Shown here: positions 24,298-31,336 of the stretch, in pieces
How the letters are laid out: each line of letters opens with the position of its first letter
Numbering within the stretch: the first letter of the stretch is position 1
The notes under the pieces: generated by a model
Database searches by the model: none
What the model was told of the DNA's origin: nothing
Seen by the model: the letters and a program-made list of their open reading frames with translations, nothing else
Assembly: GCA_900620265.3 (NCBI GenBank)
Contig: UYNY03000040.1
Location: forward strand, 1 to 41,722
Direction: 5' to 3'
Length of the DNA: 41,722 nucleotides
From: Nitrosopumilaceae archaeon
GTDB taxonomy: Archaea > Thermoproteota > Nitrososphaeria > Nitrososphaerales > Nitrosopumilaceae
Made by a program: the position numbers and the translations under genes

Positions 24298-24843
24298 TTG
24301 GCTGACGGGACACCCTGGGAGGATCTGATAGGTATGTTATGGCCCGATCTTGTCGGGGTATTCGGAATAAGTGGGACGTTCGGAATACCCGTCTACATAT
24401 ACCTCAGAGGCCGCCGCAGTGACGGCAAGATTCGGAGGCAGATTATCGGATTCATGCTTGACTGGCTGGAGGACTGTACCCACTATAGGAGATACAGCGC
24501 TGGAGACGCCAAGATCCGGCTGTTAAAGACCCTGGTCGAAAAGCGTGACGCCTCCTATGACCTCCTGTTGACCCACGCCCAGGCCTTTGCAGTCAACTCT
24601 GTCACTGAGATGGTTGACACCCTGCGGGCAATCCGTGCTCACTTTGACATCCTTTCGGAAAGACCAGACGACGCCAGCCAGAACGTAGCCTTCAACGAGC
24701 ACGTAGAATACATAAAGCAGTATCTACATGACGCGTACCCGCGGGAGTACCGGGATTTCCGGCTCAAGCTGGAGGAGCGGAGGGTAACACAGAGGTGGGG
24801 CTTCCAGTGGTCGATAGCCTCTAGTGATCCTCCCGACCCCTGA
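24298..24843 (+). CDS. Hypothetical membrane-anchored protein in accessory segment
   Basis: 181 residues from a TTG at 24298; TATA-like GATTAAATC at 24267-24275 gives leaderless spacing and supports this start. A single hydrophobic segment near the N-terminus (LVGVFGISGTFGIPVYIYL, about 18-37) is followed by a helical cytoplasmic-type domain: GKIRRQIIGFMLDWLEDC, RLLKTLVEKRDASYDLLLTH, TEMVDTLRAIRAHFDILSE, HVEYIKQYLHDAYPREYRDF. Family not recognised. Codon use is less GC-biased than the genome core. It lies exactly between the two 36-bp direct repeats and overlaps the convergent YwgA-like gene by 23 bases, so it looks like inserted cargo. Confidence 0.7.
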   Translation: MADGTPWEDLIGMLWPDLVGVFGISGTFGIPVYIYLRGRRSDGKIRRQIIGFMLDWLEDCTHYRRYSAGDAKIRLLKTLVEKRDASYDLLLTHAQAFAVNSVTEMVDTLRAIRAHFDILSERPDDASQNVAFNEHVEYIKQYLHDAYPREYRDFRLKLEERRVTQRWGFQWSIASSDPPDP

Positions 24844-25270
24844 TCAGGCCCTGTGCTGCGAACTCTGGATAGTCCCAATACACCTGCTTTAGGACGGTCA
24901 TGAGTGAGAGCCCCTGCAGGTGCTTTATCAGCTTCTGCATGTCCTCCAAAAACCCCTTCTCCCTTTTTAGCTCCTTGTATTCCTTGGACGCCTCGACGGA
25001 GAGGCGGTACTTTTTGAACTCTGTGCCGCTCTTTTCGTCCCGTATCTCAATGAGGTGCCCGTCTCGTACGGCCGCATCAATGCCGTCCGCCAGCTCCTGG
25101 CTGTACGGCCCAAAGTGGTTCGGTTTCCAGTCGGTGTAAAACCCGTATTCGTCCACCACCGGGTACTTTTGGTATATGTAGAACCCGTATTTCTGTATGC
25201 GCGTCCTGCCGCCTATTGTCTGATCCTGTATTATGAGCAACAGGCGCCGGTCGCACCCCGTACCCTCCAT
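24821..25270 (-). CDS. YwgA/SocA-like protein
   Basis: 149 residues from ATG 25270; GTATTAAT at 25293-25300 is a TATA box at the right distance. The pattern is that of YwgA and the SocA/DUF4065 group: LLLIIQDQTIGGRTRIQKYG, FYIYQKYP, KPNHFGPYSQELADGIDAAV and RDGHLIEIRD, then a helical C-terminus (LQGLSLMTVLKQVYWDYPEF). The same GxTRIxK...FGPYS...G pattern forms the first half of the two putative antitoxins at 28.4 and 29.9 kb, but here the UPF0175-like C-terminal part is absent. Proteins of this fold are often antitoxins or regulators. No PIN gene is adjacent. Its 3' end is duplicated at 24105-24140. Confidence 0.78.
   Translation of the reverse strand: MEGTGCDRRLLLIIQDQTIGGRTRIQKYGFYIYQKYPVVDEYGFYTDWKPNHFGPYSQELADGIDAAVRDGHLIEIRDEKSGTEFKKYRLSVEASKEYKELKREKGFLEDMQKLIKHLQGLSLMTVLKQVYWDYPEFAAQGLIRGREDH
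24832..24867. repeat. 36-bp direct repeat (partner 24105-24140)
   Basis: CCCGACCCCTGATCAGGCCC and onward; 33 of 36 bases match 24105-24140 in the same orientation. Distance between copies 727 bp. It frames the 24298-24843 gene and includes the 3' end of the YwgA-like gene. Confidence 0.88.
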
Positions 25271-25419
25271 GAGTCGATCTTCACCTGATACTGTATTAAT
25301 GTTATCGGTAGTATATAAGGCGTTTATGTCGAGCCTGTCCCCGCCCACGCTCGATCCCGACTCTCAGATCCCGCCCTGCTACGCCTACCAAAATATGGGG
25401 CGGCTTTTCCCCAGACGTC

Positions 25420-26142
25420 GTGATCACGAGGCGGGCCGTGCCGGGGGACGTCGGGACGGTGCGCCGGATATGCCGCCGGATATACCCGCGCGGCGACTAT
25501 GTCGAGGACGCGCTCGGCTCGTGGATCCGCGCAGGATCGCTCTACGTGGCAGAGGAGGGCAAGATGCGCGGCATCTTTGCACTTCATATTGAGGGGGACG
25601 CGGCCTGGCTGCACGGGGCGCGCGTCGACCCCGGGTTCCAGGGGATGGGGCACGGCACCGCCATGTACCTGGCCGCCGAGGGGCTGGCGCGCGGGGCCGC
25701 CCGCATGAGGGCGTTCGCGGCGCCGCGCGGGTCCCGCATACTTGAAAAGCTGGGGTACCGCAGGATTTCATCGGTCGGCGCGTTCGTGGCGGGGGACGGC
25801 GCGGAGCCTTCCTGGGACGGGTTCTCCGGCCCAGAGTATGATCCGGGGATATCCGTGATGGACTCGTGGATGATGGTGCGCGGCGGGATGGCGCTCTCCC
25901 TCGGATCGCTGTCAGTATCGCTTGCAAGGTCCCGCTTTACGTCCGGCGTCTCGCTCACGCTGCTGCGCGGGGACCCTGCCGACCTGTGGGGGTATGTCGC
26001 GCCAAGGATCGACGCGCGCGGCAAGGCCGCCTACAGGTGGTGGACGCGCCTAGAGGTGCTCTGCGCCGGGCCCGACCCCGGCCTTGAGCGCGCGGGGTTC
26101 CAGGATGTGGGCAGGTACGCGCTGTATGAAAAGGCCATCTAG
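25420..26142 (+). CDS. GNAT-family N-acetyltransferase
   Basis: 240 residues. The first 115 residues show the GNAT fold: ITRRAVPGDVGTVRRICRRI, YVAEEGKMRGIFALHIEG, then the acetyl-CoA loop ARVDPGFQGMGHGTAMYLAA (V-x-P-x-x-Q-G-x-G-x-G/A) and RMRAFAAPRGSRILEKLGYR. The second half (about 120-240) is a less conserved extension that may be a substrate domain. The GTG start at 25420 is supported by CAAAATATG about 30 bases upstream. It could acetylate a small molecule, protein N-terminus or aminoacyl-tRNA. Overlaps the convergent EVE gene by 4 bases. Confidence 0.88.
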   Translation: MITRRAVPGDVGTVRRICRRIYPRGDYVEDALGSWIRAGSLYVAEEGKMRGIFALHIEGDAAWLHGARVDPGFQGMGHGTAMYLAAEGLARGAARMRAFAAPRGSRILEKLGYRRISSVGAFVAGDGAEPSWDGFSGPEYDPGISVMDSWMMVRGGMALSLGSLSVSLARSRFTSGVSLTLLRGDPADLWGYVAPRIDARGKAAYRWWTRLEVLCAGPDPGLERAGFQDVGRYALYEKAI

Positions 26143-26552
26143 CGGGACATCCTGTCGATCATGTCCCAGATCCTCTTTGGGACGGGCAGGACCGACAGCC
26201 GCGATATCCTCAAGAGATCCCACCCCTCGAACCTCGGGTCCGCCTTTATCTCCTGCAGGGTGACGGGCCTCTTGAAGGTACTCTTGTACTTTACGTCGAC
26301 GACGACGAACCTCTCGTCGTCCTCCTCCGGGTTCGGGTACGGCCTTGAGGTGACCTGCATCGTGCCGACGGCCTGCCTCTCGTCCCCCGTGTGGTAATAT
26401 ATGACGAGGTCGCCGGGCGACATGGACCTGATGTGCTTGAGGGCCAGGTTGTTGTGGACGCCGTCCCAGACCGTCCTGCCGTCCTTCTTTAGGCGCGAGA
26501 GGGGATAGCCCCGCGGGCCGGACGGCTCCTGCTTTGCAAGCCAGTACTTCAC
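26139..26552 (-). CDS. EVE-domain protein
   Basis: 137 residues, one EVE domain of the PUA-like fold: MKYWLAKQEPSG, WDGVHNNLALKHIRSMSPGD, LVIYYHTGDERQAVGTMQV, FVVVDVKYKSTFKRPVTLQE, ISRLSVLPVPKRIWDMI. EVE domains are thought to read modified bases in RNA or DNA and are often found near restriction or toxin genes. GTG start with a TATA-like TCAAATAA about 30 bases upstream on the minus strand. Single-domain, full-length. The 267 bases from 26553 to 26819 hold this promoter and that of the Lrp-type gene; no tRNA or further gene was seen. Confidence 0.92.
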   Translation of the reverse strand: MKYWLAKQEPSGPRGYPLSRLKKDGRTVWDGVHNNLALKHIRSMSPGDLVIYYHTGDERQAVGTMQVTSRPYPNPEEDDERFVVVDVKYKSTFKRPVTLQEIKADPRFEGWDLLRISRLSVLPVPKRIWDMIDRMSR

Positions 26553-28279: not shown

Positions 28280-28398
28280 CCGGCCCGCGCCCCCCGGTGG
28301 CCGCTTATGGGCGGGCCGCCCGGACCGCACTCCGGGGGCGGGCGCGGCGGCGCCCCCCGTACAAACGGGTTAAATGGGGAGTGCCGGATGCCCCCGGC

Positions 28399-28992
28399 AT
28401 GGCCCTGCAGCTGGAGGTGGACGAGGCGAGGCGGGACATGTACCTGCTGCTCCGGGCGACAGAGTTTGAGCGCGGCTCTGAAAGGATCACAAGGGCCGAG
28501 AGGATCCACGAGGCGCTGTTCGTCCTTTGGAGCCGCAGGGGGCTTGCGGCCGGCGACTTTGAGATCAAGAGGGACGGTTGCCGCAGCCCGTCGCTTGCGC
28601 ACGCGCTGGAGGAGGCGGTGCGGTCCGGCGAGGTCGTGCACGAGACAGACGCCGGCCTTGACACGTACTCGCTGACAGACAGCGGGATCGCCGCGGCAGG
28701 GGAGGCGTGGGACGCCGCCGGCATTGACGAGAGGGCCGATGCCTCCGAGGCAAAGTACGCGGTCAGCGGGATAAGCGGAAGGGAGCTGGCCTCGTTCCTG
28801 TACGCGGCGTTCCCAGAGGTGTGGAACGATCCGGCGGCCCGGGCAGAGGCGGCCCGGGGGGGATTTGACGCGGCGTGCTCGATGTACGACAAGGGCAAGA
28901 TAACGATCAGCAGGGCGGCGTCCATGGCCGGCATGGGGTACGAGGAGTTCATGAGGGCGTTCCAGGCTACCGGCAAGCCGTTATCCGGCTAG
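28399..28992 (+). CDS. Putative two-domain antitoxin (YwgA-like plus UPF0175-like)
   Basis: 197 residues from ATG 28399; a GGGTTAAATG box at 28369-28378 gives leaderless spacing. N-terminal half (about 12-105) has the YwgA/SocA-like pattern ITRAERIHEALFVL...SPSLAHALEEAVRSGEVVHE with a YSLTDSG end. A linker contains SGRELASFLYAAFPEVWND (126-144). The C-terminal 40 residues, SMYDKGKITISRAASMAGMG and YEEFMRAF, match the UPF0175 antitoxin pattern (YxxGKIxxxxAAxxAGxxxxEF). The next gene, 22 bases on, codes a PIN nuclease. The same architecture and order recurs at 29865-30967. A DNA-binding antitoxin role is inferred from domains and context. Confidence 0.75.
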   Translation: MALQLEVDEARRDMYLLLRATEFERGSERITRAERIHEALFVLWSRRGLAAGDFEIKRDGCRSPSLAHALEEAVRSGEVVHETDAGLDTYSLTDSGIAAAGEAWDAAGIDERADASEAKYAVSGISGRELASFLYAAFPEVWNDPAARAEAARGGFDAACSMYDKGKITISRAASMAGMGYEEFMRAFQATGKPLSG

Positions 28993-29014
28993 ATGATGGA
29001 AGATATCAAGATGG

Positions 29015-29530
29015 ATGCGTTTGATAATTCTGGTTGACGCCGATATTTGGATTTGCCCTTACGTGGCGGGATTGATCGGCGTAACGGGGGAAATCGTGGC
29101 GGTACTTGGACACAGGATCTGTATAACAGGCGGGGTGCTGGACGAGCTTGGAAGGAAGTATGACGGCGCATGCATAAGCGTGAAGAAGATGGCGGAGGCC
29201 GGGACGATCACCGTTGTCAAGGTCCCGTCCCGGTACTGCGGCAGGCGGATGATTTACAAGGATGCCGAGGACGAGCTGATCGCCGTGGCAACGTGCTCCG
29301 AGGCCGGCATGCGCGATCACTACCGGCTTGTTACAAACGACAAGGCCGCCCGGAAGAGATGCGATAGGAAGCAGATACCCTCGCTTGGAATACTCGGATT
29401 CCTCGTGTGGTGCCGCAAGAACGGCCTTCTTTCGCACGACGATCTGGCAGGCGGATATGACAGGATGGTGGAGGACGGCACGGTCTTCAAGACGACAAGG
29501 GACAGGTTTCTTGCAGGGATTGTAGACTAG
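29015..29530 (+). CDS. PIN-domain ribonuclease (VapC-like toxin)
   Basis: 171 residues. PIN pattern: IILVDADIWICPY with Asp8, ITGGVLDELGRKY with Glu44, YKDAEDELIAVATCSE with Asp83/Glu85/Asp86, and LVTNDKAARKRC with Asp109, which supply the acidic metal site. The end (SLGILGFLVWCRKNGLLSHD) is the usual last helix region. PIN toxins cleave RNA when freed from their antitoxin. Start at ATG 29015 because other nearby ATGs are out of frame. It follows the putative antitoxin by 22 bases and is probably cotranscribed. Confidence 0.85.
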   Translation: MRLIILVDADIWICPYVAGLIGVTGEIVAVLGHRICITGGVLDELGRKYDGACISVKKMAEAGTITVVKVPSRYCGRRMIYKDAEDELIAVATCSEAGMRDHYRLVTNDKAARKRCDRKQIPSLGILGFLVWCRKNGLLSHDDLAGGYDRMVEDGTVFKTTRDRFLAGIVD

Positions 29531-29644
29531 GCCGGTCCCCGTTTCCGGGCGGGCTAAATACGGGTGTGCCGGGACCCGCGGCACGTACGTGCGGCAGGGG
29601 GCGTCACACGTGCATGCCGTCCCCGGCGCGGGACGGACCCCCGG

Positions 29645-29812
29645 GGTTCTGTTGAAAATTCGTGAGCCGGTCCCGCCTGCCGTAGAATGCTCCCGGGCCG
29701 GCCGCCCGGAGCCCGGCCTGCAGGACGCGGGAGGGCGGATCGGACTGGCTGCAGGCCGGATCCCCCGGCGAGGTCTGCCTAGCCCGCGCCTCCGCGAATT
29801 TTCAGCAGAACC
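29645..29812. mobile_element. MITE-like element, 168 bp, 18-bp terminal inverted repeats
   Basis: Left end GGTTCTGTTGAAAATTCG (29645-29662) and right end CGAATTTTCAGCAGAACC (29795-29812) are inverted repeats matching 17 of 18. The interior is GC-rich with GGGCCGGCCGCCC-type palindromes and no credible gene. Its first 105 bases recur inverted at 31232-31336 with nine differences. It occupies the gap between the first and second toxin-antitoxin pairs (29531-29864); the rest of that gap holds the promoter of the next gene. No target-site duplication was recognised. Confidence 0.82.
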
Positions 29813-29834
29813 GTGACGCAAAAAGTATGGTTGG

Positions 29835-29859
29835 TATATATACACGGCCATACGGAGGT
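29835..29859 (+). promoter_or_regulatory. TATA box and Shine-Dalgarno-like site of the second module
   Basis: TATATATA at 29835-29842 begins 30 bases before the ATG at 29865, and GGAGGT at 29854-29859 lies 5 bases before it. Most genes in this window have the first signal without the second. Confidence 0.65.
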
Positions 29860-29864
29860 TTGAC

Positions 29865-30455
29865 ATGAACACAGTAGACCAAGGGACCACTTGCTTTGGA
29901 AAAGCCGGTAATGAGATCGGCATGGCCGTACTCAAACTGCTCGAGAAATACGAAAAGCCCATGAACAAGACCAGGATCCACAAGACATTCTTCATCATGA
30001 CAAAGGATATGACACGCCTTGCACCGGATTTTGACTTCAAGCCCGACGATTATGGCCCATTCAGCCAGGTCTTGGAATCCACGCTTCGTGGTCTGAAAAA
30101 TGATGGGCTTGTGTACTACAATGAAAAGTCCAAATATGCAAAGCCGGTCAGCCTTGAAACTGAGGGTAAAATCGTCTGTGATGAGGAAGGAAACAAATTA
30201 GACAAGGAAATAATCGAACGGTTTCCAGATTACATTGAGATATTTGAAGGATTGGAGCATGATGAAATGCTGGCATTTGTTGATTCTATGTTTCCAGAAA
30301 TGGCCGTAAATTCCAAAAAATTCAAAAACGAGATAGAGCCACATCTCCAAACGTTCATTGTAAACTTGATAAATAAAGAAAAAATAACCGTAGGTCGTGG
30401 TGCCCAACTGTTGAAAATACCATACAGTGAAATGAAGGACCATTTGAGAGAATAG
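29865..30455 (+). CDS. Putative two-domain antitoxin, second copy, AT-rich
   Basis: 196 residues. Matches the 28399 protein region by region: KPMNKTRIHKTFFIM and DDYGPFSQVLESTLRGLKND with GLVYYN (YwgA/SocA-like half, about 20-105); EHDEMLAFVDSMFPEMAVN (131-149); and NLINKEKITVGRGAQLLKIP with YSEMKDHL (UPF0175-like half, 167-194). Overall identity is low but the order, spacing and length are the same. Codons are strikingly AT-ending from about 30120 on, unlike the host, a sign of recent transfer. The stop TAG at 30453-30455 overlaps the reading frame of the following PIN protein. Confidence 0.78.
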   Translation: MNTVDQGTTCFGKAGNEIGMAVLKLLEKYEKPMNKTRIHKTFFIMTKDMTRLAPDFDFKPDDYGPFSQVLESTLRGLKNDGLVYYNEKSKYAKPVSLETEGKIVCDEEGNKLDKEIIERFPDYIEIFEGLEHDEMLAFVDSMFPEMAVNSKKFKNEIEPHLQTFIVNLINKEKITVGRGAQLLKIPYSEMKDHLRE

Positions 30456-30967
30456 GTGGTTGTCTGTATATTCTTGATTCATCATGCATAATAACAATAT
30501 TTGAAGAATCTGATTTTCCAGAACTTATGGATTTGATACTTAAATTGGATGATATTGGGGTGCCAGAATTATTAATCAGGGAAGAATTACAAAGCCACGG
30601 ACGTCAAACTATATCTGGAGAACGTATAGAACAATATGTTAATGATAATAAAGTAATATTGTTGAAGAACAGTCAGTGGGACATAATTCAGTTCATAAGT
30701 GAACTTCCTTATATTAAACAGACACAGTTTGGGCCCGGTGAAATTTATGTGATGTGCGCATACAAGTATAACAATACTGGTTTCGACGTTTGCTGTGTTA
30801 TTGATGAAGACAAGGCTACCAAATATTCAAAGGAGCAAGGATACGCCCATGTCAATACTGATTATTTGTTGAGGCGCCTTTTGGTTGAAGGACACGTTAA
30901 TAACCGGCAATTTGATAAAATACGCAGGAATATACGGAATAACCAATCAAATCAACGAAGACCATGA
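30452..30967 (+). CDS. PIN-domain VapC-like toxin, start codon unresolved
   Basis: The open frame runs from 30431 to 30967 and reads YILDSSCIITIFEESDFPEL, then VPELLIREEL, FGPGEIYVMCAYKY, CCVIDEDKATKYSKEQGYAH and NTDYLLRRLLVEG. These match the PIN motifs: first catalytic Asp at codon 30476-30478, Glu in REEL, and Asp in IDEDKA. The first ATG in frame (30527) would delete the first Asp, and there is no in-frame ATG, GTG or TTG before the motif. ATA at 30452-30454 overlaps the antitoxin TAG stop and would give 171 residues, the same as the other PIN protein. Alternatively a GTG at 30457 plus one extra base explains it, meaning a frameshift or inactive gene. Very AT-rich. Partner of the preceding gene. 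Confidence 0.7.
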   Translation: MGGCLYILDSSCIITIFEESDFPELMDLILKLDDIGVPELLIREELQSHGRQTISGERIEQYVNDNKVILLKNSQWDIIQFISELPYIKQTQFGPGEIYVMCAYKYNNTGFDVCCVIDEDKATKYSKEQGYAHVNTDYLLRRLLVEGHVNNRQFDKIRRNIRNNQSNQRRP

Positions 30968-31231
30968 TGTTGGGTATTATTGATAATGGGCGTAATATTG
31001 AACTTGATGATTTCAAACGATAAAGGGTACTCCGCAAGATGGGAAAGATTGACGGTGCAGGTGCAAGCCTCCGGCAGTGCCTCGCCATACCTGACTCTGG
31101 GTGTTTTTATGGGAAACGGCGTGCCGGTTTGTGGTGTAGGCTGGCTTGCGGAAGAGATTCCGGAATGGCGGAACCGCCCAGGGGCGGTACTCGTGCCCCC
31201 ATCCAACAGATCTCCGAGGTATCCGACCCGG
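30968..31231. other. Composition boundary, no gene recognised
   Basis: AT-rich to about 31060, then a sharp return to GC-rich sequence. Short open frames occur, including one reading VQVQASGSASPYLTLGVFMG and GVPVCGVGWLAEEIPEW, which could be a gene remnant, but no start signal, family or conserved motif supports a gene. It ends at the truncated repeat element. Confidence 0.5.
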
Positions 31232-31336
31232 GCCAGTCCGATCCGCCCGCCCGCGTCCTGCCGGCCGGGCTCCGGGCGGCCGGCCCGGGAACGGTCTGCG
31301 GCAGGCGGGGCCAGATCACGAATTTTCAACAGAACC
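31232..31336. mobile_element. Truncated inverted copy of the MITE-like element
   Basis: Reverse complement matches 29645-29749 at 96 of 105 positions without gaps. The outer end CGAATTTTCAACAGAACC (31319-31336) is an exact copy of the other element's left terminus inverted; the inner terminus is missing. The two copies face each other around the AT-rich toxin-antitoxin pair. The element ends 13 bases before the aconitase ATG. Confidence 0.85.

What the first reader, a model, noticed from the sequence alone, without database searches (positions are those of the whole stretch)
28399..30967. Two copies of an apparently new toxin-antitoxin architecture: YwgA/SocA-like + UPF0175-like antitoxin with a PIN nuclease
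Two adjacent gene pairs share an unusual order and domain build. The first protein (197 and 196 residues) joins a YwgA/SocA-like winged half to a UPF0175-like C-terminal half. The second is a PIN nuclease (171 residues in both, if the second starts at 30452). The pairs are very diverged from each other and differ strongly in base composition, so they were not made by a recent local duplication. A third YwgA-like protein stands alone 3 kb upstream. UPF0175 proteins alone are known antitoxins of PIN proteins; the fusion to a YwgA/SocA-like domain, a fold otherwise linked to other toxins or to proteolytic adaptors, suggests a composite antitoxin with an extra sensing or degradation input.
Basis: partly seen in the sequence, partly recalled or inferred. 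Interest (0 to 1): 0.82.

Follow-up and report, generated by a model that had tools for sequence, protein, structure and literature searches.

The report
DarG-like fused antitoxins with PIN toxins
This archaeal genome, probably from a marine sponge symbiont, carries about 37 copies of a two-gene "poison and antidote" module whose antidote fuses two known parts in an uncharacterised way, and relatives pair the same antidote body with three unrelated poisons by changing only its tail.

Summary
Window 28399-30967 holds two antitoxin-PIN pairs. Each antitoxin (197 and 196 aa) has an N-terminal YwgA / DarG-C-terminal-domain-like winged helix (about residues 1-155) and a C-terminal UPF0175-like HTH (about 40-45 residues, not half the protein). 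Each toxin keeps the four acidic PIN residues and belongs near the DUF3368/COG2405 PINs. The genome has about 37 loci: 12 with an apparently intact PIN, 2 fused to a PIN fragment, a few with PIN debris, about 20 with no PIN, and no PIN without an antitoxin. Outside this genome the fusion is sparse across Thermoproteota and normally single-copy. Of 42 such loci, 37 lie directly upstream of a toxin gene or its remains. Most are PIN, but the partner switched at least three times, to ParE/RelE (4 loci) and MazF (3). Every switched antitoxin has a longer tail behind the HTH (58-68 residues against 15-47), while the body is kept. UPF0175-PIN is a known toxin-antitoxin (TA) pair. I found no description of the N-terminal fusion, the expansion or the tail switch. 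Best reading: a type II TA variant with a conserved body and a tail that sets partner specificity. No function has been tested.

The parts
28399..28992 (+). Antitoxin A1 (197 aa): DarG-CTD/YwgA-like winged helix + UPF0175-like HTH, A-type subfamily
   Evidence: UPF0175 24.1 bits at residues 157-190; AF2 model pLDDT 83.2, best PDB match DarG C-terminal domain 7yk3_B, E 1.3e-3, prob 1.00; a dozen close paralogues, dN/dS median 0.42
29015..29530 (+). Toxin T1 (171 aa): PIN nuclease, DUF3368/COG2405-like
   Evidence: D8, E44, E85, D109 conserved in the PIN alignments; PADLOC PDC-S70 6.6e-7; profile matches VapC6 2lcq
29865..30455 (+). Antitoxin A2 (196 aa), B-type subfamily, AT-rich (GC 0.42)
   Evidence: NCBIfam DarG 31.1 bits at residues 21-149, PADLOC DarG 41.8 bits at residues 20-158; AF2 pLDDT 81.4
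30464..30967 (+). Toxin T2 (167 aa from CTG 30464; no ATG/GTG/TTG before the first PIN Asp)
   Evidence: PIN alignments with all four acidic positions; PIN profile E 2.7e-50, this sequence being one of the rows of that profile
28352..28398 (+). Probable leaderless archaeal promoter of A1 (GGGTTAAATGGGG, TATA-like, about 25 nt before ATG)
   Evidence: The same element stands at a similar distance upstream of most A-type copies; inference from sequence
29645..29749 (+). Left arm of inverted repeat flanking the AT-rich A2-T2 pair
   Evidence: 105 nt, 91% complementary to 31232-31336
31232..31336 (-). Right arm of the inverted repeat
   Evidence: Apart from a 22-nt exact match on contig C43, the repeat occurs at only these two places in the genome
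24821..25348 (-). Stand-alone YwgA/DarG-CTD-like protein without UPF0175 part
   Evidence: NCBIfam DarG 19.1 bits; antitoxin profile E 1.2e-4

Best explanation
Both pairs are members of one archaeal type II toxin-antitoxin family. The downstream gene is a PIN (VapC/DUF3368-like) ribonuclease toxin. The upstream gene is an antitoxin made of a DarG-CTD/YwgA-like winged-helix body, a UPF0175-like HTH and a short C-terminal segment. Most likely the body and HTH dimerise and bind the operon's own promoter, and the HTH plus the segment behind it bind and block the toxin, so that the last part sets partner specificity. Shown: gene order, domain homology, active-site residues, conserved linkage in many genomes, purifying selection, partner switches that go with tail changes. 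Inferred: toxicity, neutralisation, complex formation, autoregulation, and the division of labour between body and tail. In this genome the module has multiplied. Many toxins were lost or fused while antitoxins stayed, as expected when losing the antitoxin first is harmful.
For: Domains: UPF0175 over cut-off in relatives; DarG-CTD by profile (7yk3_B 4.4e-7) and by fold; HTH match 2cob 0.007. Toxin: DUF3368 over cut-off in L118 and L120, VapC6, catalytic residues. Linkage: 24 intact and 6 broken or partial PINs, 4 ParE/RelE and 3 MazF among 42 loci outside this genome (families). Tails: PIN partners 15-47 residues after the anchor, ParE/MazF partners 58-68, no overlap. The tree needs 3 partner changes; one starred clade (100/99) holds PIN, MazF and ParE partners. 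dN/dS medians 0.42 (antitoxin) and 0.33 (toxin), none above 1. Toxin loss without antitoxin loss.
Against: No experiment. PIN-paired antitoxins, A2 above all, have almost no residues behind the HTH, so the tail cannot be the whole PIN-binding surface; the winged-helix body may do it, as the DarG C-terminal domain does with DarT. The tail comparison rests on few independent events (about three). A1 itself is below Pfam's UPF0175 cut-off, and neither T1 nor T2 passes a Pfam PIN cut-off.
Confidence: 0.85

Rival explanations
1. The winged-helix body itself is the neutraliser, as DarG-CTD is for DarT or Panacea for many toxins; the HTH and tail only bind DNA or stabilise. Partner switching then reflects a promiscuous body. 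(A rival on mechanism inside the toxin-antitoxin reading.)
For: Best fold and profile match is the DarT-bound DarG C-terminal domain; PIN-paired tails can be nearly absent; Panacea shows that such promiscuity exists (PMC8832971).
Against: Within one clade (A9: L101, L123 PIN; L131 RelE/ParE; L124 MazF) the body stays 44-52% identical while only the part behind the HTH is added or replaced.
Confidence: 0.35
2. The winged-helix body is a sensing or proteolytic adaptor input, as in SocA; degradation or ligand binding there releases the toxin.
For: YwgA/SocA-type domains are linked to adaptors (PMC8832971 on SocA); the domain is kept in all copies.
Against: No DUF4065/SocA match in any Pfam scan; no ligand site was sought; nothing in the data tests it.
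Confidence: 0.15
3. Not a toxin-antitoxin pair: a transcription factor with a PIN RNase used for RNA processing in normal regulation.
For: Both parts of the first protein are HTH-type folds; about 20 antitoxin-only loci in this genome.
Against: Exchange of the PIN gene for ParE/RelE or MazF genes, toxins of unrelated fold, in the same position; patchy distribution; toxin decay without antitoxin decay.
Confidence: 0.08
4. The many antitoxin-only copies in this genome are assembly errors or foreign contigs.
For: 113 contigs; contamination estimate 2.67%.
Against: Copies lie on many contigs, most with GC near the genome's, including inside long contigs with other genes; most open frames are intact.
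Confidence: 0.05

Closest known systems
COG2886 (UPF0175)-PIN toxin-antitoxin pair (COG2405/DUF3368 PIN); PADLOC candidate PDC-S70
   Same: UPF0175 HTH antitoxin upstream of a DUF3368-like PIN toxin, in archaea; COG2886-RelE pairs also known in cyanobacteria (PMC2701414; PMC6929052; PADLOC)
   Different: Here only the HTH part of UPF0175 is present, fused behind a DarG-CTD/YwgA-like domain of about 155 residues
DarTG: DarG C-terminal domain
   Same: Same domain by profile and fold
   Different: No macrodomain and no DarT; a UPF0175-like HTH is attached; toxin is a PIN (or ParE, MazF)
YwgA (Bacillus)
   Same: Antitoxin profile finds the YwgA-like genes of Paenibacillus and Pullulanibacillus at E 1.9e-9 and 4e-9 (the gene name comes from my own knowledge of the ywfO-ywgA order)
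   Different: YwgA lacks the UPF0175 part and is not beside a PIN gene
Panacea / DUF4065 antitoxins (incl. SocA)
   Same: One antitoxin domain meets many toxin folds (PMC8832971)
   Different: No DUF4065 match in any scan; partner change goes with a tail change
paREP6 of Pyrobaculum
   Same: Described as distant COG2886 relatives beside PIN genes, repeated within genomes (PMC2701414)
   Different: Could not test whether it is this same fusion; no paREP6 sequence was at hand by name

Membership tests
Type II toxin-antitoxin (general) | Two-gene operon, antitoxin next to toxin, conserved across genomes | tested here: met
   37 of 42 loci outside this genome, mostly overlapping or within 20 nt
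Type II toxin-antitoxin (general) | Toxin inhibits growth; antitoxin binds and neutralises it | not testable with these tools
   needs expression assay
COG2886/UPF0175 antitoxin | UPF0175 domain | tested here: inconclusive
   HTH part only; A1 24.1 bits against cut-off 27.9, A2 no hit; relatives over cut-off; 19 of 22 members match at E<=0.01
DUF3368/COG2405 PIN toxin | PIN fold with four acidic residues | tested here: met
   D8, E44, E85, D109 in T1 and equivalents in T2; VapC6 match 5.6e-4
DUF3368/COG2405 PIN toxin | C-terminal DUF3368 segment | tested here: inconclusive
   over cut-off in L118 and L120, weaker in further relatives, absent from the T1 and T2 scans
DarG (DarTG) | DarG C-terminal domain | tested here: met
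DarG (DarTG) | Macrodomain and DarT partner | tested here: not met
   no macrodomain match in the antitoxins; partner is PIN
Panacea/SocA (DUF4065) | DUF4065 domain | tested here: not met
   no match
VapBC | Toxin with PIN domain | tested here: met
VapBC | Antitoxin binds own promoter | not testable with these tools
   TATA-like element about 25 nt upstream of most copies is a candidate site only

The most novel reading that the evidence does not exclude
The DarG-CTD/YwgA-HTH body is a general archaeal antitoxin platform onto which toxin-specific tails are grafted, so that one platform controls PIN, ParE/RelE and MazF toxins. In one lineage it has spread to about 37 loci, whose antitoxin-only members act as a pool of cross-protecting or regulatory antitoxins.
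Probability: 0.3. Interest if true: 0.8.

Novelty: new variant of a known kind. Interest (0 to 1): 0.6.

Why it matters
It joins two antitoxin domains known from different systems (DarG-CTD/YwgA and UPF0175) in one archaeal family. It also offers natural pairs in which the same antitoxin body meets three unrelated toxins with only the tail changed, a ready experiment on what sets antitoxin specificity. The expansion, with toxins dying while antitoxins persist, is a visible record of how such modules decay in a probable animal symbiont.

Tried and rejected
Named genome scan with the mixed alignment A1 failed for lack of conserved stretches; A3 found nothing (own genome withheld); A4 gave 11 named loci. 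Viruses: no relatives with A4 or A3. Plasmids: none for L125, one N-half-only hit for L118. SocA/DUF4065 reading rejected (no Pfam match). Foldseek on the A2 model gave only generic winged helices, none significant; the A1 model gave DarG. Local duplication of the two pairs rejected (about 20% identity, different clades). paREP6 identity could not be settled. The window's genome could not be named; GC about 65% and 2.0 Mb fit sponge symbionts such as Ca. Cenporiarchaeum (66% GC, PMC6697440), inference only.

Full report
**What is there.** The window is contig C40 of a 2.0 Mb genome in 113 contigs, 96% complete. At 28399-30967 lie four genes on the plus strand: A1, T1, A2 and T2. A1 and A2 are about 20% identical. 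The last gene has no standard start codon in front of its first catalytic Asp.

**Domains of the antitoxins.** UPF0175 matches A1 at residues 157-190 with 24.1 bits, below the cut-off of 27.9. It passes the cut-off in paralogues (44.9 bits on C56) and in relatives L086, L118, L120, L121 and L125. A2 residues 21-149 match DarG (31.1 bits; 41.8 bits over 20-158 with PADLOC). A profile of 27 members finds the solved DarG C-terminal domain 7yk3_B at 4.4e-7 in its N-terminal part, and an HTH (2cob, 0.007) in its C-terminal part. AlphaFold models of A2 and A1 (pLDDT 81.4 and 83.2) agree: winged helix, helical linker, C-terminal HTH. The best PDB match of the A1 model is again 7yk3_B (E 1.3e-3, probability 1.00, TM 0.47-0.49); the A2 model gave only weak winged-helix matches. 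The SocA/DUF4065 label does not hold (no match). The UPF0175 part is about 40-45 residues, so "half and half" is not exact.

**Domains of the toxins.** No Pfam PIN model reaches its cut-off for T1 or T2. The alignment keeps all four acidic PIN positions, a 26-member profile matches VapC6 2lcq (5.6e-4), and PADLOC's PDC-S70 PIN matches T1 (6.6e-7). Relatives pass the DUF3368 cut-off (L118 38.7 and L120 27.6 against 27.3 bits).

**Copies in this genome.** The antitoxin profile gives 45 matches at E<=0.01, about 37 of them clear members by score; the PIN profile gives 16. Twelve PINs are apparently intact, counting T1 and T2, and all sit directly behind an antitoxin. Two are fused to the antitoxin as fragments (C54, C23). 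One is truncated at its start (C69:58946), some are debris (C25, C113:24.5k), and one is cut by a contig end (C47). About 20 antitoxins have no PIN within 1.1 kb that is not another copy's partner, and no PIN lacks an antitoxin. C113 has an array of eight antitoxins with five PINs; C55 and C17 have three antitoxins each. Most copies carry a TATA-like TTAAATA element about 25 nt before the start codon, which suggests leaderless promoters (inference). dN/dS has a median of 0.42 for antitoxins and 0.33 for toxins, with no pair above 1.

**Elsewhere.** In the same family 13 of 250 genomes have a match, in the class 17 of 400 sampled, in the phylum 29 of 398 sampled; some of these weaker matches cover the N-terminal part only. 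After this genome the highest number is 7 (G013); nearly all others have one. Named loci are Nitrosopumilus, other Nitrosopumilaceae and further Thaumarchaeota. I counted 42 distinct loci outside this genome with both parts: 24 with an intact PIN, 6 with a broken or partial PIN, 4 with a ParE/RelE gene (L097, L098, L115, L131), 3 with a MazF gene or its remains (L124, L151, L152), and 5 with nothing recognised (families). MazF in L152 scores 94 bits; in L124 and L151 the frame is broken. The tally was made by hand from those outputs.

**Tail and partner.** Counting residues from the Ile/Val that opens the HTH, PIN-paired antitoxins have 15-47 and ParE/MazF-paired ones 58-68, without overlap (Mann-Whitney p 7e-5). 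The sequences are related, so the p-value is not to be taken at face value. A tree of the bodies, tails left out, needs three partner changes, and one strongly supported clade (100/99) holds PIN, MazF and ParE partners. In that clade bodies are 44-52% identical while the tail is absent (PIN) or about 40 residues of toxin-specific sequence. I take this as the best evidence on mechanism. It does not explain PIN binding by A2, which ends at the HTH.

**Compared with what is known.** COG2886(UPF0175)-PIN pairs were described in 2009, together with COG2886-RelE in cyanobacteria and the paREP6 relatives of Pyrobaculum (PMC2701414). Geobacillus has COG2886 with a COG2405/DUF3368 PIN (PMC6929052). One domain meeting many toxins is known for DUF4065/Panacea (PMC8832971). 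I found no paper on the DarG-CTD/YwgA-UPF0175 fusion; the library lacks most subscription journals, and paREP6 may prove to be the same fusion. Reported TA enrichment in sponge Thaumarchaeota is ambiguous: the abstract of PMC7848895 says enriched, its text says not.

**Verdict.** A real, widespread and apparently undescribed architecture of a known kind of system, with a remarkable expansion here. Function is inferred throughout.

Noticed in passing
window 29645-29811 and 31211-31336: The AT-rich A2-T2 pair is flanked by an inverted repeat (105 nt, 91%). The left copy is a 166-bp element with its own inverted ends (GTTCTGYTGAAAATTCG), a motif not found elsewhere in the genome; it may be a mobile cassette.
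   Followed up: partly
L015:2617-3636 (C54) and L062:1559-2836 (C23): Natural fusions of the antitoxin to a PIN lacking its N-terminal part, so without the first catalytic Asp.
   Followed up: partly
L009:3414-12317 (C113): Array of eight antitoxins and five PINs; preceded, like the C55 array, by a very long repeat-rich surface-type protein with the same C-terminal region.
   Followed up: partly
L105: Thaumarchaeal-type fusion antitoxin (58% identity) on a contig labelled Acidimicrobiia bacterium: mis-binned contig or transfer.
   Followed up: no
L074:1315-1770 and window 24821-25348: A second family of stand-alone YwgA-like proteins (FYEDWK...GPYS and similar) without UPF0175 part or toxin neighbour.
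   Followed up: no
window 26139-26552: Minus-strand ORF that reads like an EVE-domain protein (recognised by eye, not searched).
   Followed up: no
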